The notes beneath the pieces were generated by a model that was given only the letters and a program-made list of their open reading frames with translations, did not search any database and had not been told where the DNA came from. A program made the position numbers and the translations under genes. From positions 1 through 49,800 of the forward strand of contig VRUD01000026.1 in NCBI GenBank assembly GCA_019456305.1: a stretch of DNA of 49,800 nt, in the 5' to 3' direction. Position 1 is the stretch's first letter, and every line of letters starts with the position of its first letter. Of the stretch, positions 4,264 through 34,682 are shown piece by piece. The DNA is from Cytophagales bacterium. GTDB lineage: Bacteria > Bacteroidota > Bacteroidia > Cytophagales > VRUD01.

Positions 4264-6678
4264 ATGAACAAATTAAAATCAATAATCGCAATTTTGCTTT
4301 TAAGTTTAATCACTTTATCCTTTAAAGCAAAAGCCCAAACCTGGGATTCTGTGGGAACGGGAATGAATGGTGGTGTAGGGGCATTTGTTGTAGATACAGT
4401 TAATAATATCCTTTATGCCGGTGGAGGGTTTACCACTGCGGGTGGAGTAAGCGCCAATAATATTGCTAAATGGGACGGAACAAGCTGGGATTCTTTAGGA
4501 TCAGGATTGAATAGTGGTGTACAAGCATTAGCAATTTATAATGATACACTCTATGCGGCAGGTTCTTTTACATTGGCAGGTGGAATAAGCGCCAAATACA
4601 TTGCAAAATGGAACGGAACAAGCTGGGATTCTGTAGGAACCGGAATGGATTCTGATGTCATGACATTAGCCGTTTACAATAATACACTTTACGCAGGAGG
4701 ATTTTTTTCAACTGCAGGTGGAGTGAGTGCACCAACTATTGCAAAATGGGATGGAAGTAATTGGAGTTCTGTTGGAACAGGAACTAATCTTTTTGTTCTG
4801 TCTTTAGCCGCGCTTAATACTGTTCTATACGTTGGTGGTCTATTTACTACTGCAGGTGGAGTAAGCGCTATTAATATTGCACAATGGAATGGGACAAGCT
4901 GGGATTCTTTAGGAAGTGGACTTGGAGATCCCTTTGCAGATCAGGTGTTGGCTATAGATTCGTTTAATGGTGAGGTTTATGCGGGAGGGACTTTTATTAA
5001 TTCAGGAGCAATGAGCATTTATAGGATCGCTCGATGGAATGGAGCAAGCTGGGATTCAGTAGGAACCGGGATGAACTTTGATGTTGAGTCCTTAACCAAC
5101 TATAACAATGAACTCTATGCAGGAGGTCTTTTTACAACCGCAGGTGGAGTGGCAGCAAATTATATTGCAAAATGGAACGGGACAAATTGGTATCCAGTAG
5201 GGACAGGAATGAATGGTTGGGTTTATTCATTAATTGAGTATAATGGTGAACTCTATGCGGGTGGTGATTTCACAACCGCAGGTGGTATAAACGCAAATTA
5301 TATTGCCAGATGGAACGCAGATACTTGTGGAATTACCTCCTCTTTTACTTCCAGCGCAACAACGATTTGTGAAGGAGAAATCATCAATTTCACCAATACC
5401 AGCACAGGAGCTATTACTTATGAATGGCAGCAAAACGGTACTCCTTTTAGTACGGCTACCGATACTTCAAGAACATTTAATATAGCAGGTACTTATTCCA
5501 TCAGTCTTATTGCAGATAGCGGCAGTTGCAGTGATTCATCCGGTGTTATAATTATTGTCAATCCAACTTATTCTTTCAACACACCTAACGACACCATCTG
5601 TGATGGCGATAGCGTTTTGATAGGTGGTGTTTATCGCAAAACCGCAGGAATATACTATGACAGCTTAACTACTGCCAATAGTTGCGACAGCATAATTGCT
5701 ACAACCTTGATCGTCAATCCAACTTATTCCATTAACACACCTAACGACACCATCTGTGATGGCGATAGCGTTTTGATAGGTGGTATTTATCGCAAAACAG
5801 CAGGAACATACTATGACAGTTTAACCACAGTCAATAGTTGCGACAGCGTAATTGCTACAACCTTAATCGTCAATCCAACTTATACCATTAACACACCGGA
5901 TGAAACCATCTGCGATGGCGATAGCGTTTCGATATTTGCTGTTTATCGCAAAATAGCCGGAACATACTATGACAGTTTAACCACTGCCAATAGTTGCGAT
6001 AGCGTAATTGCTACAACCTTAATCGTCAATCCAACTTATACCATTAACACACCTAATGAAACTATCTGCGATGGCGACAGCGTTTCGATATTTGCTGTTT
6101 ATCGCAAGATAGCCGGAACATACTATGACAGCTTAACCACTGTCAATAGTTGCGATAGCGTAATTGCTACAACCTTAATAGTTAATTCATTACCAACTGT
6201 TAATCTCGGTGCAGATACTATTATTTGCAATAGTTGTTCAATAACGCTTGATGCGAGTGCAGGTTTTTCAAGCTATGACTGGTCAACAGGAGAAACCACA
6301 CCAACCATAACAGTTGATTCAACAGCCACTTATATAGTACAAATCACAGATACAAATGGCTGTTCAGCCACAGATTCAATTGCAGTAACTATCTCAACTG
6401 GCATCAATAATCAATCAACAATCAACAATAATCAATTAAAAGTTCACCCAAATCCAAACACCGGAGAATTCACCGTAACATTCAACATAACAGAAAAGCA
6501 GCAAATCAATCTCAAAATAATTAACATAAAAGGTCAGATAATTTATCAGGAAAATCTAACTGATTTTACAGGCAGCTATCAAAATAAAATAGATATGAGT
6601 GGCTATGCAAAAGGAATATATAATTTACAACTATCAACTAAGCAAGGAACAATCAACAAAAAAATAATCCTTGAATAA
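4264..6678 (+). CDS. T9SS-secreted repeat protein (kelch-like repeats, PKD, four 52-residue repeats, sorting domain)
   Basis: An 804-residue surface protein. A signal peptide ends at KAKAQ (residue 25). Residues about 26-355 hold seven repeats of about 46 residues built on LYAGGxFTTAGGVSAxxIAKWNGTSW, likely propeller blades. A PKD/Ig-like domain follows (about 356-432), then four nearly identical 52-residue repeats (433-640), one more Ig-like domain with the LGADT...WSTGE signature of bacterial adhesins, and a C-terminal T9SS type A domain starting LKVHPNPNTGEF (about residue 726). Five heptad DNA repeats encode the Asn/Gln-rich linker just before the sorting domain. The domain order suggests an adhesin or surface scaffold, not an enzyme. 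It has a clear promoter of its own and a palindrome 12 bp after the stop. Confidence 0.85.
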   Translation: MNKLKSIIAILLLSLITLSFKAKAQTWDSVGTGMNGGVGAFVVDTVNNILYAGGGFTTAGGVSANNIAKWDGTSWDSLGSGLNSGVQALAIYNDTLYAAGSFTLAGGISAKYIAKWNGTSWDSVGTGMDSDVMTLAVYNNTLYAGGFFSTAGGVSAPTIAKWDGSNWSSVGTGTNLFVLSLAALNTVLYVGGLFTTAGGVSAINIAQWNGTSWDSLGSGLGDPFADQVLAIDSFNGEVYAGGTFINSGAMSIYRIARWNGASWDSVGTGMNFDVESLTNYNNELYAGGLFTTAGGVAANYIAKWNGTNWYPVGTGMNGWVYSLIEYNGELYAGGDFTTAGGINANYIARWNADTCGITSSFTSSATTICEGEIINFTNTSTGAITYEWQQNGTPFSTATDTSRTFNIAGTYSISLIADSGSCSDSSGVIIIVNPTYSFNTPNDTICDGDSVLIGGVYRKTAGIYYDSLTTANSCDSIIATTLIVNPTYSINTPNDTICDGDSVLIGGIYRKTAGTYYDSLTTVNSCDSVIATTLIVNPTYTINTPDETICDGDSVSIFAVYRKIAGTYYDSLTTANSCDSVIATTLIVNPTYTINTPNETICDGDSVSIFAVYRKIAGTYYDSLTTVNSCDSVIATTLIVNSLPTVNLGADTIICNSCSITLDASAGFSSYDWSTGETTPTITVDSTATYIVQITDTNGCSATDSIAVTISTGINNQSTINNNQLKVHPNPNTGEFTVTFNITEKQQINLKIINIKGQIIYQENLTDFTGSYQNKIDMSGYAKGIYNLQLSTKQGTINKKIILE
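5560..6183 (+). repeat. Four in-frame 156-bp tandem repeats
   Basis: Units start at 5560, 5716, 5872 and 6028; each encodes 52 residues beginning NPTY and ending ATTLIV. Units 1-2 carry SVLIGG and units 3-4 carry SVSIFA, so the array looks like an older two-unit duplication that was itself modified. As 156 is divisible by three, unit number can change without breaking the frame. Confidence 0.92.
6402..6436 (+). repeat. Five heptads in the linker before the T9SS sorting domain
   Basis: Units CATCAAT, AATCAAT, CAACAAT, CAACAAT, AATCAAT lie in tandem within the coding sequence and encode the linker INNQSTINNNQ just before LKVHPNP. Loss or gain of one unit would frameshift the sorting domain. 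Confidence 0.85.
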
Positions 6679-23483: not shown

Positions 23484-23567
23484 ATGACGAAGTAGGAATG
23501 ACGAATGACGAAGTACGAATGATCCCGAGTACTCGGGATACTTCGTCATTCGTACTTCGTATTTCAT
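23484..23567. repeat. Heptad hairpin with central CCCGAGTACTCGGG palindrome
   Basis: Units ATGACGA, AGTAGGA, ATGACGA, ATGACGA, AGTACGA (23484-23518), then a palindrome at 23522-23539, then ACTTCGT, CATTCGT, ACTTCGT, ATTTCAT (23540-23567), reverse complementary in type. A related array lies at 24086-24140. Both precede the same duplicated promoter segment. Confidence 0.8.
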
Positions 23568-23618
23568 TAGATTGCATTTTAGAATCTATATTATTAACTT
23601 TACATTTTTAATTTTCAC
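23541..23618 (+). repeat. 78-bp direct repeat, copy 1, with candidate promoter
   Basis: Matches 24114-24191 in 76 of 78 bases. It includes TTG (23572-23574), a 20-bp spacer and TAACTTTA (23595-23602), a near match to the -33/-7 promoter, and ends 2 bp before the ATG of the small antitoxin-like gene. Confidence 0.85.
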
Positions 23619-23619
23619 T

Positions 23620-23826
23620 ATGAAAACACTAATTGTAAATGTTCCGGATAAAAAAGAAAACTATTTAAGGAGTTTATTAAAAAAACACCGCTTTAAATCG
23701 CGTGTATTACCGCAAGAAGAAGACGAAGACCTGATGGCTAAATGGATTGATGAAGGAATGGAAAGCGAAGAAGTTCCAATAGAAAAAATTTACGAATACA
23801 TGAGAAAAAATGGAGTTGATTGTTAA
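23620..23826 (+). CDS. Small antitoxin-like protein
   Basis: A 68-residue protein, MKTLIVNVPDKKENYLRSLL..., very charged, with C-terminal helices DEDLMAKWIDEGMESEEVP. The short N-terminal strand (TLIVNVPD) followed by helices resembles small Bacteroidota antitoxin-like proteins that often precede RelE or PIN toxins. No toxin gene follows, so it would be an orphan. It has its own candidate promoter with a leader of only about 10 bases. The assignment as antitoxin is inference from shape and composition; the reading frame itself is convincing because it starts directly after the duplicated promoter segment. Confidence 0.65.
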   Translation: MKTLIVNVPDKKENYLRSLLKKHRFKSRVLPQEEDEDLMAKWIDEGMESEEVPIEKIYEYMRKNGVDC

Positions 23827-23958: not shown

Positions 23959-24009
23959 AATATTAGAATATGTTTTTCAGGAGGAACTATAGTAGTTCGC
24001 ACAATATTA
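23959..24009. repeat. 51-bp dispersed repeat, copy 1
   Basis: Identical over 51 bases to 34593-34643, same orientation. It contains a 6-bp hairpin GAACTA-TAG-TAGTTC preceded by GGAG. The two copies bracket the two giant adhesin genes. Confidence 0.92.
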
Positions 24010-24113
24010 CGAAATGAAAAGTTGGCTATTGAAAATATAAATAAAACACTTGTATATAATCATAGCCAACTAGACAACTATAACTATGACGAATGACGAA
24101 TGACGAATTCGTA

Positions 24114-24191
24114 CTTCGTCATTCGTACTTCGTATTTCATTAGATTGCATTTTAGAATTTATATTATTAACTTTACATTTTTAATTTCCAC
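24114..24191 (+). repeat. 78-bp direct repeat, copy 2, with candidate promoter of the first giant adhesin
   Basis: Copy of 23541-23618. TTG (24145-24147) and TAACTTTA (24168-24175) with a 20-bp spacer lie 35 bp before the ATG at 24210, so the adhesin and the small antitoxin-like gene appear to be driven by duplicated promoters. Confidence 0.8.
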
Positions 24192-24209
24192 CCTTAAATT
24201 ATAAATATT

Positions 24210-27200
24210 ATGAAAAAGCTAATCCTTTACTCGTCAATTTGCAGTTTGGCTCTATGCGCCATGCTCTATGCGCCATGCGCATACGCCCAGGTCGTTGAAA
24301 AATGGAAAGTGATCTATGACGGAGGCGCTGGAGATAGGGGAGCTGATATGGTTGTTGATGATTCGGCAAATGTGTATGTAACCGGATATAGCCAGGATGG
24401 AGGGGGACTCTCTGATTATTATACGGTGAAATACGATAGTAACGGGGTAGAGCTATGGTCTGCGACCTATGTCCTGGTTGTAGGTAATGATTATGCCCAG
24501 GCCATAGCCATTGATGCTGCAGGAAATGTGTATGTAACCGGATATAGTAATAACGGTGGTGGTAGTGATGAATATTTAACCATAAAATACAATGCCAGCG
24601 GAGGGCAGTTATGGGCAGTGACCTTTAATAATTTTGCTAATCAACGTGCACAAGACATAGTCGTTGATGCTGCAGGGAGTATTTATGTAACGGGAGATGG
24701 CGGGCCCATCGGCAGTACTGATTATATCACTGTAAAATACAATCCTGACGGTACTCAGGCATGGTGGCATCAATATAACGGACCCGGGAATGGAAATGAT
24801 TACGCCCGTGCCATTGTTGTAGATGATATTACCGGGACTGGCGTTTATGTAACCGGAAGTGGTCTGGCAGGAGTAGGCGATGATTTTATAACTATAAATA
24901 TTCTTCCTTCGGGCACTTTTGGTTGGGGGCAATTCTATAATGGGATTGGTAACGGCAATGATGTTGCACGTGCCATTGCCATAGATGCCACAGGGGTGTA
25001 TGTAACCGGGGAGAGCGAATTTGCACCTGGAAACTATGATTATGTCACTATAAAATACGATTTTACCGGAGTGCAGCTATGGACTACACCCTATGACGGT
25101 GGATTGGGAGGTAATGATAGAGGAAGGGCCATCGCTTTGGATGGTTCAGGGAATGTGTATGTAACCGGGTTCAGCAGTAATGGCGCCAATGATGATATTG
25201 TAACTGTAAAGTACAATAACACCGGCACCGAGCTATGGCCTGCTGTCTATGATGGAGGCAGCGATGATATCGGAGAAGCCATTGCAGTAGATGCTTCAGG
25301 CAATGTGTATGTAACCGGAAAAAGTGGTATTCCCGGCATTTTTGATTATACCACTATAAAGTACAATACCAGCGGTGTGCAGCAATGGGATACGGTTTAT
25401 GGGAATCCGATTTTTGACGATTTAGCAACAGCGATAGCTGTGGATAATTCAGGCAATGTGTATGTAACCGGCTATAGCCGCAACAGTGTCCCCAATGATG
25501 ATATTGCCACCATCAAATATTGCGATAACATACCGGTGGCATCGGTAGTTGCAGATCTGGATACTATTTGCACCGGATTTGTTGCAACCTTAACTGCTTC
25601 AGGAGGTACTAACTATCAATGGAGTACCGGAGATGCAGCAGCAATCATCACTGTAGTTCCACCCCTCACAACTACCTACTGGGTGATCGTTTCCAATAGC
25701 TGTTCTTCAGATACGGCTTATGTGACCATTACTGTAAATCCACTACCTCTAGCCATCATCACAGCAAGCAGCCCAACAACCTTCTGTGCCGGAGACAGTG
25801 TGGATTTATTATCAGTAGATACCGCTGGTATTGCCAACTATGACTGGTTGTTAAATGGTGTAGCCACAGGCGCAACAGGCTGGACCTATAATGCACTTAT
25901 GGGTGGAGATTATCAGGTGGTGGTTTGGAATACTTTTGGTTGTTATGACACATCAGCAGCTATTACAGTTACCGTTAATCCGCTGCCTACAGCCAATATC
26001 ACAGCAAGCGGACCGACAACATTTTGTCAGGGTAATAGCGTCACTTTAACATCTGACCCTGCTGCCGGTTATTCATGGAACACAGGAGCTGCAACTCAAA
26101 GCATCACCGTCAGTGTCGGTGGAGTTTATTCCGTAACGGTAACCGATGGAAACGGTTGCAGCGGAACTTCTGCTGCAACCTCAGTAGTAGTAAATCCTCT
26201 CCCAACTGTAAATCTGGGATCAGATACCACCCTCTGCACCGGAGGCACCTTTATCCTTGATGCAGGAAATGTGGGTTCTACATATCTATGGTCAACCATT
26301 GAAATTACACAAACAATAGTTGTAAGTACTTCAGGCACTTATTGGGTAGAAGTAATTGATGCAAATAGCTGTCTGAACATAGACAGCATCATTTTAACAA
26401 TAAATCCTCTCCCTATAGTAGATGCAGGAGTTGATATTTCAATTTGCAATGACGGAAGCACAGTGATTTTAGGCGGCTCACCAACAGCATCGGGAACAAG
26501 TCCATTGACATACAATTGGTCTCCAGGGATTAATTTGGATAACCTTATAGCAGCCAACCCGGTTTTCACTCCTCTTAGTGTGGGGATCACACAATTTGAA
26601 GTAATTGTAACAGATGGAAATGGCTGTATTGACACAGCCACAATCCTAATTACCATCAATAATTTGCCAATAGTCAATCTTGGCTCTGATACCACCATCT
26701 GCACCGGAGGCACGCTTATCCTTAATGCTAGCAATACCGGTTCTGCTTATGTATGGCAGGATGCCTCTACCAATCAAACCTACAACGTCATATCCTCCGG
26801 CACTTATTCTGTACAAGTAACCGATCCGGGTGGCTGCACAGCAAGCGATACGATCACGATCAGCCTCTCACCTGCTATGACTACCGGCATCACTGCCATT
26901 CCTGAAAACAACTGCCAGGGAGATGGCATTGCGATCTTGACTGTTACAGGAGGAACCTTGCCTTATACTTTCCTTTGGTCTAACGGAGCCATCACGCAAA
27001 ACCTTTCAGGACTTTCAGCAGGCACGTATATTGTGACTGTCACAGATTCCAATGACTGTACAGCTATAGATACAGCAGCGATAGGAGGCGCTTTACCTCC
27101 CACTACGAGCATCTCCTCTATTGCTGAAACCGGCTGCGGAAATAACGATGGTACAGCAGTTCTATCTGTTTTTGGAGGCGTTGCTCCCTATACTTTCAGT

Positions 27201-29531
27201 TGGTCTAATGGGGCTACAACCCAAAATATTGCCGGGCTTGCATCAGGAACTTACACCGTGATTGTAACCGATGCAAATACTTGTTTGGCTTTCGATACGG
27301 CTGTCATTGGCTCACCACCGCTGCCATCTGTAAGCATTACCGGTTTTGATGAAGGCGCTTGCGATGCCAATAACGGTATAGCTGTAATGACCGCTTCAGG
27401 AGGTACATCACCCTACACTTATAGCTGGTCAAACGGGGCAACTACACTATCCATCACAGGACTAACTCCGGGTATCTATGTTGGAACTGTCACCGATAAC
27501 CTTGGCTGCTCCGCAAGCGATGCCGTCACCATCAATGAAGCGCCAGGCCCCTCCGTTACCCTCACAGGCATAGATGAAGGCAGTTGTGGCGCTGGCAATG
27601 GTACAGTAATTTCCTCTGCCTCCGGAGGAACTTCGCCTTATACTTATCTTTGGTCAACAGGTGCCACTACTGTCAATATCACCTTGCTTTCATCCGGTAC
27701 CTATTCTTTAACAGTAACTGATTCAATTAACTGTACAGTTAGCGACAGCGTTACACTGCAAGAGCCGGCCACTTTCACTTTATCAATAAGCGCAACTACA
27801 AATGCCACATGCGGTACAAACGATGGCAGCGCTACAGTCACCATTACCGGTGGTACGCCACCCTTCACTTATTCGTGGTCAAGCGGTGACACACTTGCTA
27901 CGGCTGATAGCTTGATTGCAGGTATTTATATTATTACAGTTACAGATGCCACCGGCTGCTCTAATTTTGCTGTTGCCACTATCAGCAATGTTGGGGGTGC
28001 AACAATTACTACTACTTTGGTGACTAACGTAAGCTGTTTTGGCGGTTCAGACGGAGCTATCAATATTACCGTAACAGGCGGCATCGCTCCTTATACTTAT
28101 AGCTGGTCTGATGGAAACACCTCCCAGGACATCAGCAGTCTTGCTGCCGGGCCTTATGAAGTGAATGTTACCGATAACAGCGGTTGTGTTTCTACCAAAA
28201 GTATCTTAGTCACTCAACCGGCAGCTTTGAGTCTGACTGTTTCAGAAACAGCCGCAATTTGCGATAGCGCTGATGGGAGCGCAACGGTTAGTGTTGCAGG
28301 AGGAACAGGTCTCTACACATTTAGCTGGGCAACAACTGGCGGGACCGATAGCACAGAAACCGGTCTGACAGCCGGCATTTATACCGTTACTGTTTCTGAC
28401 GCCAACGGATGTACCGATTCCATTACAGCAGCTATTAGCAATTTCGGAGGACCGGCCATTGTAGTTGACCTCATAGAAAATGCAGATTGCGGTGCGGAAA
28501 TTGGAGCTATTTATATTACCGTATCAGGTGGTACAGAACCCTACGCTTACCTGTGGTCAAGTGGCGATACGACACAGGATATTACAGGCTTGCCTGCAGG
28601 TATCTATGATGTGACAGTGACGGACTCAACCAACTGCCTCTCCACAGAGAGTTTTGAAATAACAGGAGCTCAGCCGCCACTCGAAACAATCTGCCTTGTC
28701 ACCGTTGACAGCGCCACAGGCAAGAACCTTATCGTTTGGGAGAAAAATCAGACAACCCTGGTGAAATCATATAATATCTACAAAGAAAGTTCTCAGATAA
28801 ATGTTTATTACCTGATAGGCAACATGCCTGTTGACAGCGTTAGCGTATTTGTGGATACCTTGTCAGACCCAAAGCTCAGGTCATGGAGGTACAAGATGCA
28901 GGTGGTAGATTCATGCGATAATGAATCGGATTTAAGTGCAGACCATAAGACGATGCACCTGAATATAAATTTAGGAATACCCCCTGCAATAAACCTGATA
29001 TGGGATCATTATGAAGGTTTCCCATTTGCTACCTATTATGTTACCAGGTACACCGTATCAACCGGCTGGGTAACCTTAGATTCGCTGGCAAGCAACCTTA
29101 CTTCCTATACCGATCCTACACCGCCCAATGAAGACCTCTATTACGTTGTTGAGGTAAAGCATCCTACAGGCTGTGATCCTAATCTGAGTAAAGTATTAAC
29201 CTACAATTCTGCCAGGTCAAATGTATCCAACAGGCTATTGCCTACCGGCATTGATCAGTTTCGAGTTTCGAGTTTCGAGTTTCGAATTTTTCCCAATCCA
29301 TATTCGGGTGTGACTCAGATAAGCTATACTTTACCTGAAAAAGCAGATGTGCTCTTAGAAGTATTTAATGTTTTGGGCAAAAAGATAGAAGTATTGGCTA
29401 ACGGGGAACAAAAAAGCGGAGCGTATCAATATAGCTTCAGTGCAAAGGAGCTGGGTTATTCATCCGGGGTTTATATCCTGAAGCTTATTGCAGGGGAAGA
29501 TGTATACACTAAGCAGTTGATAGAATTTTAA
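24210..29531 (+). CDS. Giant T9SS-secreted adhesin-like protein with SBBP and SprB-type repeats
   Basis: A 1773-residue surface protein. The signal peptide ends at CAYAQ (residue 27) and is encoded by five heptads. Eight beta-propeller (SBBP) repeats with the core NVYVTGYS cover about 30-440. Several Ig/PKD-like domains (LGSDTTLC...WST type) follow to about 870, then about nine SprB-type repeats of about 80 residues built on GGTxPYTYxWSNGATTxxIxGLxxGxYxVTVTDxxGC to about 1490. A fibronectin-like region (NLIVWEK...SYNIYKES) precedes a type A sorting domain from IFPNPYSG (1693-1773). It is probably displayed on the cell surface for adhesion or motility, like SprB-repeat adhesins. The second giant gene begins 29 bp after its stop and is probably co-transcribed. 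Confidence 0.9.
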   Translation: MKKLILYSSICSLALCAMLYAPCAYAQVVEKWKVIYDGGAGDRGADMVVDDSANVYVTGYSQDGGGLSDYYTVKYDSNGVELWSATYVLVVGNDYAQAIAIDAAGNVYVTGYSNNGGGSDEYLTIKYNASGGQLWAVTFNNFANQRAQDIVVDAAGSIYVTGDGGPIGSTDYITVKYNPDGTQAWWHQYNGPGNGNDYARAIVVDDITGTGVYVTGSGLAGVGDDFITINILPSGTFGWGQFYNGIGNGNDVARAIAIDATGVYVTGESEFAPGNYDYVTIKYDFTGVQLWTTPYDGGLGGNDRGRAIALDGSGNVYVTGFSSNGANDDIVTVKYNNTGTELWPAVYDGGSDDIGEAIAVDASGNVYVTGKSGIPGIFDYTTIKYNTSGVQQWDTVYGNPIFDDLATAIAVDNSGNVYVTGYSRNSVPNDDIATIKYCDNIPVASVVADLDTICTGFVATLTASGGTNYQWSTGDAAAIITVVPPLTTTYWVIVSNSCSSDTAYVTITVNPLPLAIITASSPTTFCAGDSVDLLSVDTAGIANYDWLLNGVATGATGWTYNALMGGDYQVVVWNTFGCYDTSAAITVTVNPLPTANITASGPTTFCQGNSVTLTSDPAAGYSWNTGAATQSITVSVGGVYSVTVTDGNGCSGTSAATSVVVNPLPTVNLGSDTTLCTGGTFILDAGNVGSTYLWSTIEITQTIVVSTSGTYWVEVIDANSCLNIDSIILTINPLPIVDAGVDISICNDGSTVILGGSPTASGTSPLTYNWSPGINLDNLIAANPVFTPLSVGITQFEVIVTDGNGCIDTATILITINNLPIVNLGSDTTICTGGTLILNASNTGSAYVWQDASTNQTYNVISSGTYSVQVTDPGGCTASDTITISLSPAMTTGITAIPENNCQGDGIAILTVTGGTLPYTFLWSNGAITQNLSGLSAGTYIVTVTDSNDCTAIDTAAIGGALPPTTSISSIAETGCGNNDGTAVLSVFGGVAPYTFSWSNGATTQNIAGLASGTYTVIVTDANTCLAFDTAVIGSPPLPSVSITGFDEGACDANNGIAVMTASGGTSPYTYSWSNGATTLSITGLTPGIYVGTVTDNLGCSASDAVTINEAPGPSVTLTGIDEGSCGAGNGTVISSASGGTSPYTYLWSTGATTVNITLLSSGTYSLTVTDSINCTVSDSVTLQEPATFTLSISATTNATCGTNDGSATVTITGGTPPFTYSWSSGDTLATADSLIAGIYIITVTDATGCSNFAVATISNVGGATITTTLVTNVSCFGGSDGAINITVTGGIAPYTYSWSDGNTSQDISSLAAGPYEVNVTDNSGCVSTKSILVTQPAALSLTVSETAAICDSADGSATVSVAGGTGLYTFSWATTGGTDSTETGLTAGIYTVTVSDANGCTDSITAAISNFGGPAIVVDLIENADCGAEIGAIYITVSGGTEPYAYLWSSGDTTQDITGLPAGIYDVTVTDSTNCLSTESFEITGAQPPLETICLVTVDSATGKNLIVWEKNQTTLVKSYNIYKESSQINVYYLIGNMPVDSVSVFVDTLSDPKLRSWRYKMQVVDSCDNESDLSADHKTMHLNINLGIPPAINLIWDHYEGFPFATYYVTRYTVSTGWVTLDSLASNLTSYTDPTPPNEDLYYVVEVKHPTGCDPNLSKVLTYNSARSNVSNRLLPTGIDQFRVSSFEFRIFPNPYSGVTQISYTLPEKADVLLEVFNVLGKKIEVLANGEQKSGAYQYSFSAKELGYSSGVYILKLIAGEDVYTKQLIEF
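29127..29531 (+). repeat. 405-bp 3' end shared with the next adhesin gene, copy 1
   Basis: Matches 34145-34549 with only three differences, ending exactly at the stop codon; similarity upstream is far lower. It encodes the last 134 residues including the sorting domain. Four heptads TTTCGAG/TTTCGAA (29259-29286) precede IFPNPYSG. Confidence 0.95.
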
Positions 29532-29560
29532 CCTTTTAACCTTTAACCAATTTGCTTATT

Positions 29561-32500
29561 ATGAAAACAAAAATTACTTCCGTAAAAGCGCTTTTTGTAA
29601 GCGCTGCATTGTTTGTGCAGTTTGGTTTGAATGCACAACAACAAATCCCAGTTAAAATACAACAAGCAAATTTTGACAATCAGAAATTGCTGTATAAAAA
29701 TTCTAAATCATTACCTAAGACTAAAATTACCGGTAAGAAATTTTATAATGCATCAAAATTTACCGGTTCGTCTCTATCTAAAATTTTGATGGTTCCCATC
29801 TTCACTGAAGATTTTGACAGCGTAGCTATTCCTACAATACCTAGCACTTGGTCAAATATTGCTAATTTACCTCTTGGTGGAGTGTGGCAGGCAGGATTCA
29901 GCACTGCTGATGGAACTACTTTATCATCTCCAACCGGAGCAAATGGTTTTGCTTTTTTTGATTCTGATGGTTATGCTGGTGACGGAAACGCTGAAAATGC
30001 TGATTTGATAACACCCATGATTGACGCTTCTACGCTTCCTTCGGTTAGTTTGTCTTTTAGCCATTATTTCCGAGCTGGGTTTGGTGGCAATGCGGAAGTA
30101 TTTGTTAGTAATAATGGGGGAACTACTTATACCTCAGTGGCAAGCTGGTTTGCTACATCAACTCCTAATGCTCAATCAGAAAATATTGATATTTCGCTCA
30201 TTGCAGCTGGAAATGATAGTATCATGATCAAATTTCATTGGACGGGAGACTGGTCATGGTATTGGTTAATAGATGATATCGTAGTGGATATAAACCTTGC
30301 TAACGAACTTGTTTTAAATTCAATATTTTCTACTTCTTATTCTTTAATACCTTTAACTCAAGCTTTCCCTATAACTTTTGAAGGCAGAGTCGCTAATACT
30401 GGTATTAACTCCCAACCTAACGTTACACTTAATGCTAATGTTACAGGTGCCGGTACCTTTTCCGGAAATAGTACACCACTTACATTAATATCGGGAGTAG
30501 ATTCACTTTTAACTGTAGCTACTACTTATACTCCTTCAGTGATTGGCAGCTACACAGTGAATTTCGCTGTAAGTTCGGATTCCACAGATGATAATCCTTC
30601 AAATGACACCCTTTCGGAAAACTTTGATGTATCAGATACCGTTTTTGCAAGGGATAATGGCATTTTACCGGCTGGCGGCATATGGCTTGGCGCTGGAAAT
30701 CGTTATGAATATGGTAATTTTTTCCAGGTGAGTAATACACAGGATGTTACTTCTGTTACCTTTTCTCTTCATCCTGCTTCTGATTCAGGGGCTACAATGA
30801 AAGCCAAAATCTATGGCCTGCCCGGATTCACACTTATAGATTCCTCTGCCGTTTATACGGTTAATGCTGTGACTGATGTTAATGCCTTTACTACTTTACC
30901 ATTGTTGAATGCACCAATAAACCTGATAGCGGGTGATTATCTTGTTGTTCTTGCTACAACTAATGGCGCTATGAATTTTGTGGTATCTACGGGAAGTGAT
31001 CTTTTCCAGCCTAACGGTTCAACACTAATGCAGGATACGGACGGTGCACTTGGCCCTGCTGGTACATGGTATCTTTCTCTTTCAACGCCTTTTGTTAGGT
31101 TAAATTTTGCACCACCACCACCACCTGCTTGTTCAGCAAATTTCAGTTTCTTTACTGATACGACTTTGACCGTCTCATTTATCGATTCCTCTACAACATC
31201 CAATCCGCCTTTGAGCCGGTCATGGGATTTTGGAGATGGAGGTCCTGTGGATATCACTCCAAGTCCCGCTCATACCTATGGTGCAGCGGGAAGCTACTAT
31301 GTATGCTTAACCATTCTTGATAATGTTGTTTGCTCTAACACAATTTGTGATAGCGTTACCGTTCCTGCTCCACCACCACCTGGCTGTACGGCAGGCATTA
31401 GTAGTTTTACAGATGTACTTTGTTTCGGTGCCTGTGACGGCTCTGCTACAGTGAGTGCTTCCGGAGGCATCCTTCCTTATACTTATTCGTGGGCACCAAC
31501 TGGAGGAATAAACCCCACGGCAATCGGACTTTGCGGAGGAACAACCCATACAGTGACTGTTACAGATGCCGCTGGCAATAGCTGCACTGCGAGCCAAGCT
31601 ATCACCGAACCCCCTGACATTGTCATCATCTCAGAAACACCAACAGACATCACTGCCTGCGGTGCAAATGACGGAACAATCACAATAACAGCAATCGGAG
31701 GTACGGGCACATTGAGTTATTCCATAGATGGCGGAGTTATTTTTCCGAATACTACGGGAAATTTTACCGGCTTGAGTGCTGGCACTTATACTGTAGTAGT
31801 ACAAGATGCAAACGGATGTATTGTAACAGGCAGTATATTAACTATCAGCGAGCCGGGTGCACCGCCAGCGCCAGCAGCAGGAACAAATGCAACCTATTGC
31901 CAGGGAGATGCAATGGCTGACCTAACGGCAACAGGGTCAGGTGGAACACTTACCTGGTATGATGATGCAGGATTGACAAATGTAGTAGGAACTGGTGCGA
32001 CTTTCTCTCCGCCATCAACAGTGGGAACAATTACTTATTATGTCACTGAAACTGTAAGCGGATGTCAAAGTCCTGCCAACTCTGTGGTTATAACGGTAAA
32101 TCCTCTCCCAACAGTAAATCTGGGATCAGACACAACGATTTGCAATGGTTGTTCAATAACACTTGATGCAGGGGCTGGCTTTACAAGCTATGGCTGGTCA
32201 ACCGGAGAGAGCACCCAAATTATAAATGTCGATTCGGCAGGCACTTATATAGTTCAAGTTACTGATACAAATGGATGTACTGCTGCCGATACTATTATTA
32301 TTGATTTAGATTTACCACTATGCATTATTACTGCCGGCATTGCCGGCACGGATGCGAGCTGTGTTGGCAATTGTGATGGAGAAGCCAATCTGACAGTTAC
32401 AAACGGCACAACGCCCTATACTTTTAACTGGTCCAATGGAGCAGTTACTGAAGATCTGATAAACTTATGTGCAGACACTTATACTGTTACTGTTACCGAT

Positions 32501-34549
32501 TCCAACGGATGCACCGCCTCTGACAGTGTTACCATTTCATCCTCTAATACCTTAACAGCCGTCATAACAGGAGTAACGCCTGCTTCATGTCTCGCAAAAT
32601 GTGATGGAATTGCCTCTGCCTTTGCAACAGGAGGTACACAACCTTACACTTACCTCTGGAATAACCCATCGGCACAGACAAATTCCATTGCAAATAACTT
32701 ATGTGCAGGTACGTATATTGTAACAGTGACCGATGCCGCTGGATGCCCGGATACTGCAAGTGTTACGGTTAATTCAAACCCTGAAATGATACTGAATATA
32801 ACTATAACAAATGCCACTTGCGGTAATACAGATGGAAGTGCATCAGTTGTTGTCAGCAACGGAACGCCTACCTATATCTATTCATGGTCGAGTGGAGATA
32901 CGCTCTCATTTGCCGATAGTTTGGCATCTGGTTTTTATATCGTAACAGTGACCGATGCCGTTGGATGTTCTAATTTTGCCAACGTCACCATCAGCGATGC
33001 AAACGGGCCTACCATTACTGTCGTTACGTCAACAGATGTGACATGCAATGGAGGTTCAGATGGAGTTATCGGTATCAATGTAACCGATGGCACACCTCCA
33101 TACACTTTGCAGTGGTCAAACGGAAGTTCGGGGGATTTCATTTTTAATCTGCCCGCAGGACCTTATGAGATAAATGTTACAGATGCCAATGGCTGTGTTG
33201 CAACGCAAAGTATTGCAATTACAGAGCCCGATGCTCTATCCCTAACGATAAGCACGATAGACGCCACTTGTGGCAATACAGATGGAAGCGCTACGGTGAA
33301 CGTGGGCGGAGGAACGGGCGCTTACACTTATCAATGGGGTGCCGGAACGGGTTTTCAGACCACTGCAACTGCAACGGGATTGGGAGCAGGTGTGTATAAC
33401 GTAACCGTTACAGATGCAAGCGGATGTATTGACTCTGCTGCTGTTGCAGTCAGTAATATAAACGGCCCCCTCATTACCGTGGATTCAATCATTGATATCA
33501 GTTGTGATAATCCCTCAGGCGGGTCAATATATATCACCGTAACAGGAGGATATACGCCCTATACTTATTTATGGTCAAATAACGATATAACCCAGGACCT
33601 GCTCAACATCCAGGGAGGAATATATGATGTAACCGTAACAGATACGAGCGGATGTGTCGCAACAGCGAGTATGGAAATATTAGGCGTCCTACCCACCGGA
33701 GATTCCATTTGTGTCGTTACGGTGGATAGTGCGAGTGGTAAAAACCTCATCGTTTGGGAGAAGACGACGGGGGCCAATATTAAATCATACAATATTTATA
33801 AAGAGAGCACACAAGCCGGGGTTTATTTCCTCATAGGCGCTGTGCCGTTTAATGCTCTTAGCGCTTTCACCGATTCATTATCCAATCCCGTCATAAGGTC
33901 GTGGAGGTATAAAATAGCTGCAGTGGATTCCTGCGATAATGAATCCGAATTGAGCAAAGAGCACAAGACGACGCACCTCACCATAAATATGGGAATAAAT
34001 AACACCATCAATTTGATATGGGATCATTACCAGGGGTTCGATTTTGGCACTTATTATATTCATAGATACACAACATCAACCGGTTGGGAAGAAATAGATT
34101 CTATGGCGAGCAACCTCACCTCATGGACAGACCCTTTACCTCCTAATGAAGACCTCTATTACGTTGTTGTGGTAAAGCATCCTACGGGCTGTGATCCTAA
34201 TCTGAGTAAAGTATTAACCTACAATTCTGCCAGGTCAAATGTATCCAACAGGCTATTGCCTACCGGCATTGATCAGTTTCGAGTTTCGAGTTTCGAGTTT
34301 CGAATTTTTCCCAATCCATATTCGGGTGTGACTCAGATAAGCTATACTTTACCTGAAAAAGCAGATGTGCTCTTAGAAGTATTTAATGTTTTGGGCAAAA
34401 AGATAGAAGTATTGGCTAACGGGGAACAAAAAAGCGGAGCGTATCAATATAGCTTCAGTGCAAAGGAGCTGGGTTATTCATCCGGGATTTATATCCTGAA
34501 GCTTATTGCAGGGGAAGATGTATACACTAAGCAGTTGATAGAATTTTAA
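29561..34549 (+). CDS. Giant T9SS-secreted adhesin-like protein with jelly-roll, PKD and SprB-type repeats
   Basis: A 1662-residue surface protein. ATG 29561 (MKTKITSVKALFVSAALF) is preferred to an upstream in-frame TTG at 29552. A signal peptide ends near LNAQQ. Residues about 80-245 form a cleaved-adhesin/choice-of-anchor-like domain (EDFDS...PSTWSN...GGVWQAG...FFDSDGY). Then come a CARDB-like region, a PKD domain (SWDFGDGG, near 560), about ten SprB-type repeats (GGTQPYTYLWNN...VTVTDxxGC), a fibronectin-like segment and a type A sorting domain (1582-1662) almost identical in DNA to that of the previous gene. The N-terminal halves are unrelated while the C-terminal parts match, so the pair looks like different ligand-binding heads on a common export tail. 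Confidence 0.9.
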   Translation: MKTKITSVKALFVSAALFVQFGLNAQQQIPVKIQQANFDNQKLLYKNSKSLPKTKITGKKFYNASKFTGSSLSKILMVPIFTEDFDSVAIPTIPSTWSNIANLPLGGVWQAGFSTADGTTLSSPTGANGFAFFDSDGYAGDGNAENADLITPMIDASTLPSVSLSFSHYFRAGFGGNAEVFVSNNGGTTYTSVASWFATSTPNAQSENIDISLIAAGNDSIMIKFHWTGDWSWYWLIDDIVVDINLANELVLNSIFSTSYSLIPLTQAFPITFEGRVANTGINSQPNVTLNANVTGAGTFSGNSTPLTLISGVDSLLTVATTYTPSVIGSYTVNFAVSSDSTDDNPSNDTLSENFDVSDTVFARDNGILPAGGIWLGAGNRYEYGNFFQVSNTQDVTSVTFSLHPASDSGATMKAKIYGLPGFTLIDSSAVYTVNAVTDVNAFTTLPLLNAPINLIAGDYLVVLATTNGAMNFVVSTGSDLFQPNGSTLMQDTDGALGPAGTWYLSLSTPFVRLNFAPPPPPACSANFSFFTDTTLTVSFIDSSTTSNPPLSRSWDFGDGGPVDITPSPAHTYGAAGSYYVCLTILDNVVCSNTICDSVTVPAPPPPGCTAGISSFTDVLCFGACDGSATVSASGGILPYTYSWAPTGGINPTAIGLCGGTTHTVTVTDAAGNSCTASQAITEPPDIVIISETPTDITACGANDGTITITAIGGTGTLSYSIDGGVIFPNTTGNFTGLSAGTYTVVVQDANGCIVTGSILTISEPGAPPAPAAGTNATYCQGDAMADLTATGSGGTLTWYDDAGLTNVVGTGATFSPPSTVGTITYYVTETVSGCQSPANSVVITVNPLPTVNLGSDTTICNGCSITLDAGAGFTSYGWSTGESTQIINVDSAGTYIVQVTDTNGCTAADTIIIDLDLPLCIITAGIAGTDASCVGNCDGEANLTVTNGTTPYTFNWSNGAVTEDLINLCADTYTVTVTDSNGCTASDSVTISSSNTLTAVITGVTPASCLAKCDGIASAFATGGTQPYTYLWNNPSAQTNSIANNLCAGTYIVTVTDAAGCPDTASVTVNSNPEMILNITITNATCGNTDGSASVVVSNGTPTYIYSWSSGDTLSFADSLASGFYIVTVTDAVGCSNFANVTISDANGPTITVVTSTDVTCNGGSDGVIGINVTDGTPPYTLQWSNGSSGDFIFNLPAGPYEINVTDANGCVATQSIAITEPDALSLTISTIDATCGNTDGSATVNVGGGTGAYTYQWGAGTGFQTTATATGLGAGVYNVTVTDASGCIDSAAVAVSNINGPLITVDSIIDISCDNPSGGSIYITVTGGYTPYTYLWSNNDITQDLLNIQGGIYDVTVTDTSGCVATASMEILGVLPTGDSICVVTVDSASGKNLIVWEKTTGANIKSYNIYKESTQAGVYFLIGAVPFNALSAFTDSLSNPVIRSWRYKIAAVDSCDNESELSKEHKTTHLTINMGINNTINLIWDHYQGFDFGTYYIHRYTTSTGWEEIDSMASNLTSWTDPLPPNEDLYYVVVVKHPTGCDPNLSKVLTYNSARSNVSNRLLPTGIDQFRVSSFEFRIFPNPYSGVTQISYTLPEKADVLLEVFNVLGKKIEVLANGEQKSGAYQYSFSAKELGYSSGIYILKLIAGEDVYTKQLIEF
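34145..34549 (+). repeat. 405-bp 3' end shared with the previous adhesin gene, copy 2
   Basis: Second copy of 29127-29531 (three differences, changing one Glu to Val and one Val to Ile, plus one silent). The heptads lie at 34277-34304. Sequence after the two stop codons is unrelated. Confidence 0.95.
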
Positions 34550-34592: not shown

Positions 34593-34643
34593 AATATTAG
34601 AATATGTTTTTCAGGAGGAACTATAGTAGTTCGCACAATATTA
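34593..34643. repeat. 51-bp dispersed repeat, copy 2
   Basis: Identical to 23959-24009, 43 bp after the second adhesin stop. It is followed by a CCCAGAGTACCCGGGGG near-palindrome (about 34664-34680) before maf. Confidence 0.92.
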
Positions 34644-34682
34644 AAGTAACAGCATGTTGATTCCCCAGAGTACCCGGGGGAA

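What the first reader, a model, noticed from the sequence alone, without database searches (positions are those of the whole stretch)
29127..34549. Two adjacent adhesins share an almost identical 405-bp 3' end
29127-29531 and 34145-34549 differ at three positions and the identity ends exactly at the stop codons, while the regions just upstream are clearly diverged and the N-terminal domains unrelated. This indicates recent gene conversion or copying of an export-tail cassette. Homologous recombination across this repeat would delete about 5 kb and give a single gene carrying the first protein's head and the common tail.
Basis: seen in the sequence. Interest (0 to 1): 0.7.

Follow-up and report, generated by a model that had tools for sequence, protein, structure and literature searches.

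The report
Neighbouring surface-protein genes share one tail
Two neighbouring bacterial surface-protein genes carry an almost identical export-signal end because DNA was copied from one gene to the other, and this genome shows the same tail copying among at least 30 of 150 such genes.

Summary
29127-29531 and 34145-34549 differ at 3 of 405 positions, and identity stops at the stop codon. Each copy holds the end of an extracellular module, a linker and a type IX secretion (T9SS) type A sorting domain (CTD). Gene conversion between tandem paralogues explains it best. Synonymous divergence is saturated upstream but 0.011 in the tail. Trees reject A1+A2 as sisters upstream (AU p about 0.002) and support them 99/99 in the tail.

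It is not an isolated event. Among 150 CTD genes scored in this genome, 30 share a tract (at least 90 bp, at least 90% identity) overlapping the CTD with another gene, in 13 clusters. In several pairs the upstream DNA is unrelated. A single-contig relative shows the same (7 of 60). The two most alike pairs of 11,175 are both same-strand tandem neighbours. I call this C-terminal reassortment, by analogy with terminal reassortment of type III effectors.

The tail linker carries a 7-bp repeat, TTTCGAR. This genome is riddled with it, including in-frame inserts in pyrD, metH, rsmA and four aminoacyl-tRNA synthetase genes. Gain or loss of one unit in the tail would remove the CTD from either protein. 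The 5,018-bp deletion is geometrically right but untested.

The parts
24210..29531 (+). Gene A1: signal peptide, SBBP beta-propeller repeats, Ig/PKD-like and SprB repeats, extracellular module, linker, T9SS type A CTD (1773 aa)
29561..34549 (+). Gene A2: signal peptide, choice-of-anchor J, PKD, Ig_7, SprB repeats, the same extracellular module, linker, CTD (1662 aa from the ATG)
29127..29531 (+). Shared tail, copy 1 (405 bp)
34145..34549 (+). Shared tail, copy 2 (405 bp, 3 differences)
29286..29522 (+). CTD of A1 (TIGR04183 match)
34304..34540 (+). CTD of A2 (TIGR04183 match)
29259..29286 (+). Four-unit TTTCGAR heptamer array in the A1 linker (FRVSSFEFR)
34277..34304 (+). The same four-unit heptamer array in the A2 linker
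28698..29126 (+). Homologous but diverged extracellular module just before tail copy 1
33716..34144 (+). Homologous but diverged extracellular module just before tail copy 2
28884..29017 (+). Separate tract of A1 that is 94% identical to the paralogue on contig C40; A2 lacks it
29532..29560 (+). 29-bp gap between the A1 stop and the A2 ATG; suggests one transcript

Best explanation
A1 and A2 are old tandem paralogues with different heads. Recently RecA-type recombination without crossover (gene conversion) copied the last roughly 405 bp of one gene over the same stretch of the other. The 5' end of the tract lies in a stretch conserved across part of the family; the 3' end is where homology ends, at the stop codon. 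A1 to A2 is the likelier direction (inferred), because A1's upstream module groups with the other carriers of this tail type and A2's does not. The tail is the T9SS address label, thought to be cut off at the surface, so exchanging it should not alter the displayed protein. The same process acts across the genome's large set of T9SS genes, mostly through the CTD, the one part they all share. Shown: identity, saturated upstream divergence, topology switch, genome-wide tracts. Inferred: the recombination route, direction and functional neutrality.
For: A1-A2 dS is beyond estimation in both upstream segments and 0.011 in the tail (1 synonymous, 2 nonsynonymous changes in 134 codons). 189 identical polymorphic sites in a row. 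A1+A2 as a clade is rejected upstream (AU p 0.00195 and 0.00131) and supported 99/99 in the tail. Significant tracts also join C18-C34, C18-C40, C3-C18, C25-C15 and A1/A2 with C3/C18. 30 of 150 CTD genes share tracts overlapping the CTD. 5 of the 22 pairs over 80% identity are tandem neighbours (p 5e-9). A single-contig relative shows 7 of 60. SprA and 14 PorP-family genes are present.
Against: No strain, read or orthologous locus was available, so the event cannot be dated or seen as a polymorphism. Direction rests on little: of the three differences, at position 26 C3/C18/C40 share A1's base, at 42 they share A2's, at 343 they share A1's. In tail pairs with unrelated upstream DNA, conversion inside the CTD and capture of a tail by a new gene look alike.
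Confidence: 0.85

Rival explanations
1. Tail capture: a head gene acquired a copied tail by integration or illegitimate joining, so the tail was grafted on rather than homogenised in place.
For: Some other pairs share a near-identical CTD with wholly unrelated upstream DNA: C3:96203/98187, 236 bp at 99%, starting 3 nt before the CTD and ending 2 nt after the stop; also C8/C23, C7/C84 and C14/C23. C34 carries a different CTD after a module near identical to C23's.
Against: A1 and A2 are homologous for hundreds of codons before the tail, so grafting is not needed for this pair.
Confidence: 0.08
2. Assembly artefact: two similar tails were collapsed to one consensus in a draft assembly.
For: Draft genome of 159 contigs; coverage could not be checked.
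Against: Three differences are kept; the repeat lies inside a 49.8-kb contig rather than at its end; tracts of this kind join many contigs; a single-contig genome shows the same pattern, including a 385-bp tract ending at the stop codons.
Confidence: 0.05
3. Recent tandem duplication of the whole gene, followed by fast divergence of everything but the tail.
For: The genes are adjacent, in the same direction and of similar length.
Against: Synonymous sites upstream are saturated, and A1+A2 are not sisters there.
Confidence: 0.01
4. Strong purifying selection on the export signal.
For: The CTD matches a functional sorting-signal family.
Against: Only 1 synonymous difference at 89.5 synonymous sites; other CTDs in the genome have a median identity of 44%.
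Confidence: 0.01

Closest known systems
Porphyromonas gingivalis rgpA, kgp and hagA modular adhesin regions (PMC5266723)
   Same: Bacteroidota T9SS surface proteins with CTDs; near-identical internal stretches shared between genes; domain rearrangement and gene conversion proposed by the authors.
   Different: There the shared pieces are adhesin domains in a few known genes, compared across strains. Here the shared piece is the export tail itself, spread over at least 30 genes of one genome, several with unrelated bodies.
Terminal reassortment of type III and IV secreted effectors (Stavrinides et al. 2006, as described in PMC5675462)
   Same: A secretion signal at one end is joined to unrelated functional parts, so new proteins enter an existing export route.
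   Different: Here the signal is C-terminal and belongs to T9SS; most events look like homologous copying within the signal, not fresh fusions; cargo are surface proteins.
TAACTGA heptamer repeats of Beggiatoaceae, Cyanobacteria and some Bacteroidetes (PMC4679880)
   Same: Scattered tandem 7-bp units in many copies per genome.
   Different: TAACTGA makes stops in the forward orientation and is mostly intergenic. TTTCGAR has no stop in any of six frames and lies inside conserved genes.
Rickettsia palindromic elements (as described in PMC10969869)
   Same: Repeated DNA inserted in frame within protein-coding genes.
   Different: About 150-bp elements; here arrays of 7-bp units encode a 7-residue repeat (NSKLETR or FRVSSFE).

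Membership tests
T9SS type A cargo (TIGR04183/PF18962) | C-terminal sorting domain above the curated cut-off | tested here: met
   TIGR04183 61.3 and 53.9 bits (cut-off 23); PF18962 65.3 and 38.7 (cut-off 27)
T9SS type A cargo (TIGR04183/PF18962) | N-terminal Sec signal peptide | tested here: inconclusive
   Hydrophobic N-termini followed by Gln, by eye only; no predictor was run
T9SS type A cargo (TIGR04183/PF18962) | T9SS machinery in the same genome | tested here: met
   SprA 2495 bits; 14 PorP-family genes
T9SS type A cargo (TIGR04183/PF18962) | Export and removal of the CTD at the surface | not testable with these tools
   needs proteomics
Ectopic gene conversion tract | Run of identity far longer than expected from the pair's overall divergence | tested here: met
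   global p 0.0005
Ectopic gene conversion tract | Identity includes synonymous sites that are saturated outside the tract | tested here: met
Ectopic gene conversion tract | Topology differs inside and outside the tract | tested here: met
Ectopic gene conversion tract | Non-reciprocal change seen against an unconverted strain | not testable with these tools
   no second strain; none of the 38 other genomes searched, all outside its family, had a match
Terminal reassortment (type III/IV effectors) | Shared secretion signal on otherwise unrelated proteins | tested here: met
   Met for C3:96203/98187, C8/C23, C7/C84 and C14/C23; not the case for A1/A2, which are homologous upstream
Terminal reassortment (type III/IV effectors) | Belongs to a type III or IV secretion system | tested here: not met
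   The signal is a T9SS CTD, so this works like terminal reassortment but is not a member

The most novel reading that the evidence does not exclude
The T9SS sorting domain with its linker behaves as an exchangeable cassette across unrelated cargo genes (C-terminal reassortment), helping new proteins reach the surface. In A1 and A2 the cassette also carries a heptamer array whose copy number could switch export on and off by frameshift.
Probability: 0.3. Interest if true: 0.72.

Novelty: new variant of a known kind. Interest (0 to 1): 0.5.

Why it matters
Genomes can hold over a hundred T9SS cargo genes whose bodies share little. If the export label is swapped and homogenised separately from the bodies, CTD sequence is a poor guide to cargo ancestry, and new surface proteins can arise by gaining a tail. 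The pattern can be tested in any complete Bacteroidota genome with the simple tract count used here.

Tried and rejected
Relatives with the same locus: none of the 38 other genomes searched matched; the genome-contig scan gave only distant homologues. In one of these (nzgw153) tandem T9SS genes share 87.5% over 1.86 kb upstream but have diverged CTDs, the reverse pattern. Gapped blastn with an identity filter missed the A1/A2 tail, probably because alignments ran on into diverged DNA; an ungapped strict search was used instead. Direction of conversion from the three differences is not decisive. Promoter scan: no excess over shuffles (31 against 28.5). A paper search for T9SS CTD domain shuffling found none; two broader searches gave the P. 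gingivalis paper as the closest. Structure prediction was not used because it would not separate the hypotheses.

Full report
Observation. The two 405-bp stretches differ at three positions, and identity stops at the stop codon. They are the 3' ends of two large same-direction genes, A1 (24210-29531) and A2 (29561-34549), 29 bp apart. Both proteins have SprB repeats and a type A T9SS sorting domain above the curated cut-offs; their heads are of different kinds. The genome has SprA and 14 PorP-family genes, so the export system is there. The window is the whole of contig C26 of a 4.25-Mb, 159-contig, 98% complete genome. None of the 38 other genomes searched, all outside its family, holds a match.

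Why it is conversion. Eight further genes in the genome could be aligned with A1 and A2 over the module before the tail; the alignment holds ten sequences in all. Between A1 and A2, synonymous divergence is too high to estimate in the SprB and module segments and 0.011 in the tail. The pair has 189 identical polymorphic sites in a row, at the floor of 2,000 permutations. Trees place A1 with C25/C15 (SprB segment) or with C18/C3/C40 (module), reject A1+A2 there (AU p 0.00195 and 0.00131), and support A1+A2 99/99 in the tail. Constraint on the protein cannot hold synonymous sites, and whole-gene duplication cannot saturate one part only. A1 is itself a mosaic: 28884-29017 is 94% identical to C40. 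The 5' edge falls in a stretch that is nearly the same in C3 and C18 as well. Direction is uncertain; A1 to A2 is favoured because A1's upstream module groups with the other carriers of this tail type.

A genome-wide pattern. Significant tracts also join C18-C34, C18-C40, C3-C18, C25-C15, C18-C23 and A1/A2 with C3/C18. The search scored 150 CTDs, apparently its limit, of 438 first-look candidates. I fetched those 150 tails and compared all pairs. Thirty genes in 13 clusters share a tract of at least 90 bp and 90% identity overlapping the CTD. The background is low: median pair identity 44%, 99th percentile 63%, with A1/A2 the highest of 11,175 pairs. Several sharing pairs have unrelated upstream DNA: C3:96203/98187 (236 bp, 99%, tandem, ending 2 nt after the stop), C8/C23, C7/C84 and C14/C23. 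In the reverse case, C23 and C34 are near identical up to the linker and then carry different CTDs. Tandem neighbours are strongly over-represented: both pairs of at least 99% identity (p 9e-6) and 5 of the 22 pairs over 80% (p 5e-9). A single-contig genome from another family of the order shows 7 of 60, with one 385-bp tract ending exactly at both stop codons. That weakens the assembly-artefact reading.

How it most likely works. The CTD is the one segment that otherwise unrelated T9SS genes share, so homologous copying is possible there, and it ends where homology ends, at the stop codon. In P. gingivalis, type A CTDs are removed by PorU and the protein is attached to A-LPS (PMC9143113). If that holds here, exchanging tails is invisible at the surface. 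This works like terminal reassortment of secreted effectors (PMC5675462) but at the C-terminus and for T9SS; it is not a member of that class. The nearest reported case in the same secretion system is the exchange of adhesin domains among P. gingivalis gingipain and hagA genes (PMC5266723). The library searches found no description of CTD-tail exchange across unrelated cargo; absence there is weak evidence, because most subscription papers are not held.

The 5-kb deletion. Recombination between the copies would remove 5,018 bp and leave A1 with a tail that differs at no more than three positions; A2 would be lost. That is sound geometry, but no read or strain was available to test it.

The heptamer. 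The linker in both tails is four units of TTTCGAR (29259-29286, 34277-34304). The three-unit pattern occurs 62 times exactly in this genome, against 0 for the reversed control, and in only 3 of 295 other genomes of the phylum, with 1 to 3 hits each. Arrays lie in frame inside pyrD, valS, metH, rsmA and a Na+/H+ antiporter gene, and in alaS, leuS, pheS, an adenine deaminase and others. The unit has no stop in any of six frames, but 590 of 1,170 heptamer classes share that property, so it does not by itself explain this unit's success. Because 7 and 3 share no factor, every frame reads the same 7-residue cycle. One unit more or less in the tail would end A1 or A2 before the CTD, so a frameshift switch is possible but unproved.

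Verdict. Observation confirmed; conversion supported; best seen as one clear case of widespread tail exchange among T9SS genes.

Noticed in passing
Genome contigs C62:10644, C66:17021-17153, C30:43071, C48:8736, C1:12879, C59:8263, C108:3162, C46:8121, C95:11952 (loci L017, L016, L026, L025, L015, L286, L289, L285, L288): TTTCGAR heptamer arrays lie in frame inside conserved genes (pyrD, valS, metH, rsmA, antiporter, alaS, leuS, pheS, adenine deaminase), mostly encoding NSKLETR-type repeats. A lineage-specific expansion that deserves its own study.
   Followed up: partly
Genome contig C5:69112-69209 (L291): A 14-unit heptamer array ends 13 bp before the match of a PorP-family gene (C5:69222).
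   Followed up: no
window 23539-23625 and 24112-24198: An 87-bp direct repeat at 94% identity: one copy precedes a small gene beginning MKTLIVNVPDKKENYLRSLLKKHRFK, the other lies just before A1, as if a leader region had been copied.
   Followed up: partly
window about 23980-24050 and about 34595-34645: A repeat of about 50 bp (AATATTAGAATATGTTTTTCAGGAGGAACTATAGTAGTTCGCACAATATTA) occurs upstream of A1 and downstream of A2; the palindrome CCCGAGTACTCGGG also recurs in this genome.
   Followed up: no
Genome contig C34:38623-43328 (L067) against C23 (L063): Two genes near identical for about 720 bp up to the linker, then carrying different CTDs: a natural CTD swap.
   Followed up: partly
L325 (G036:C1:3772500-3780500): A cluster with five CTD matches in about 5 kb, most in short ORFs alternating with another small gene family; two of the tails are 97.7% identical.
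   Followed up: partly
JAHEZO010000027.1 (L096/L097): Tandem T9SS genes share 87.5% over 1.86 kb upstream while their CTDs differ, the reverse of the window's pattern.
   Followed up: partly
window 5554-6165: Direct repeat of period 156 bp, 87-90% identical, within an ORF (4264-6678) that ends in another T9SS CTD.
   Followed up: no
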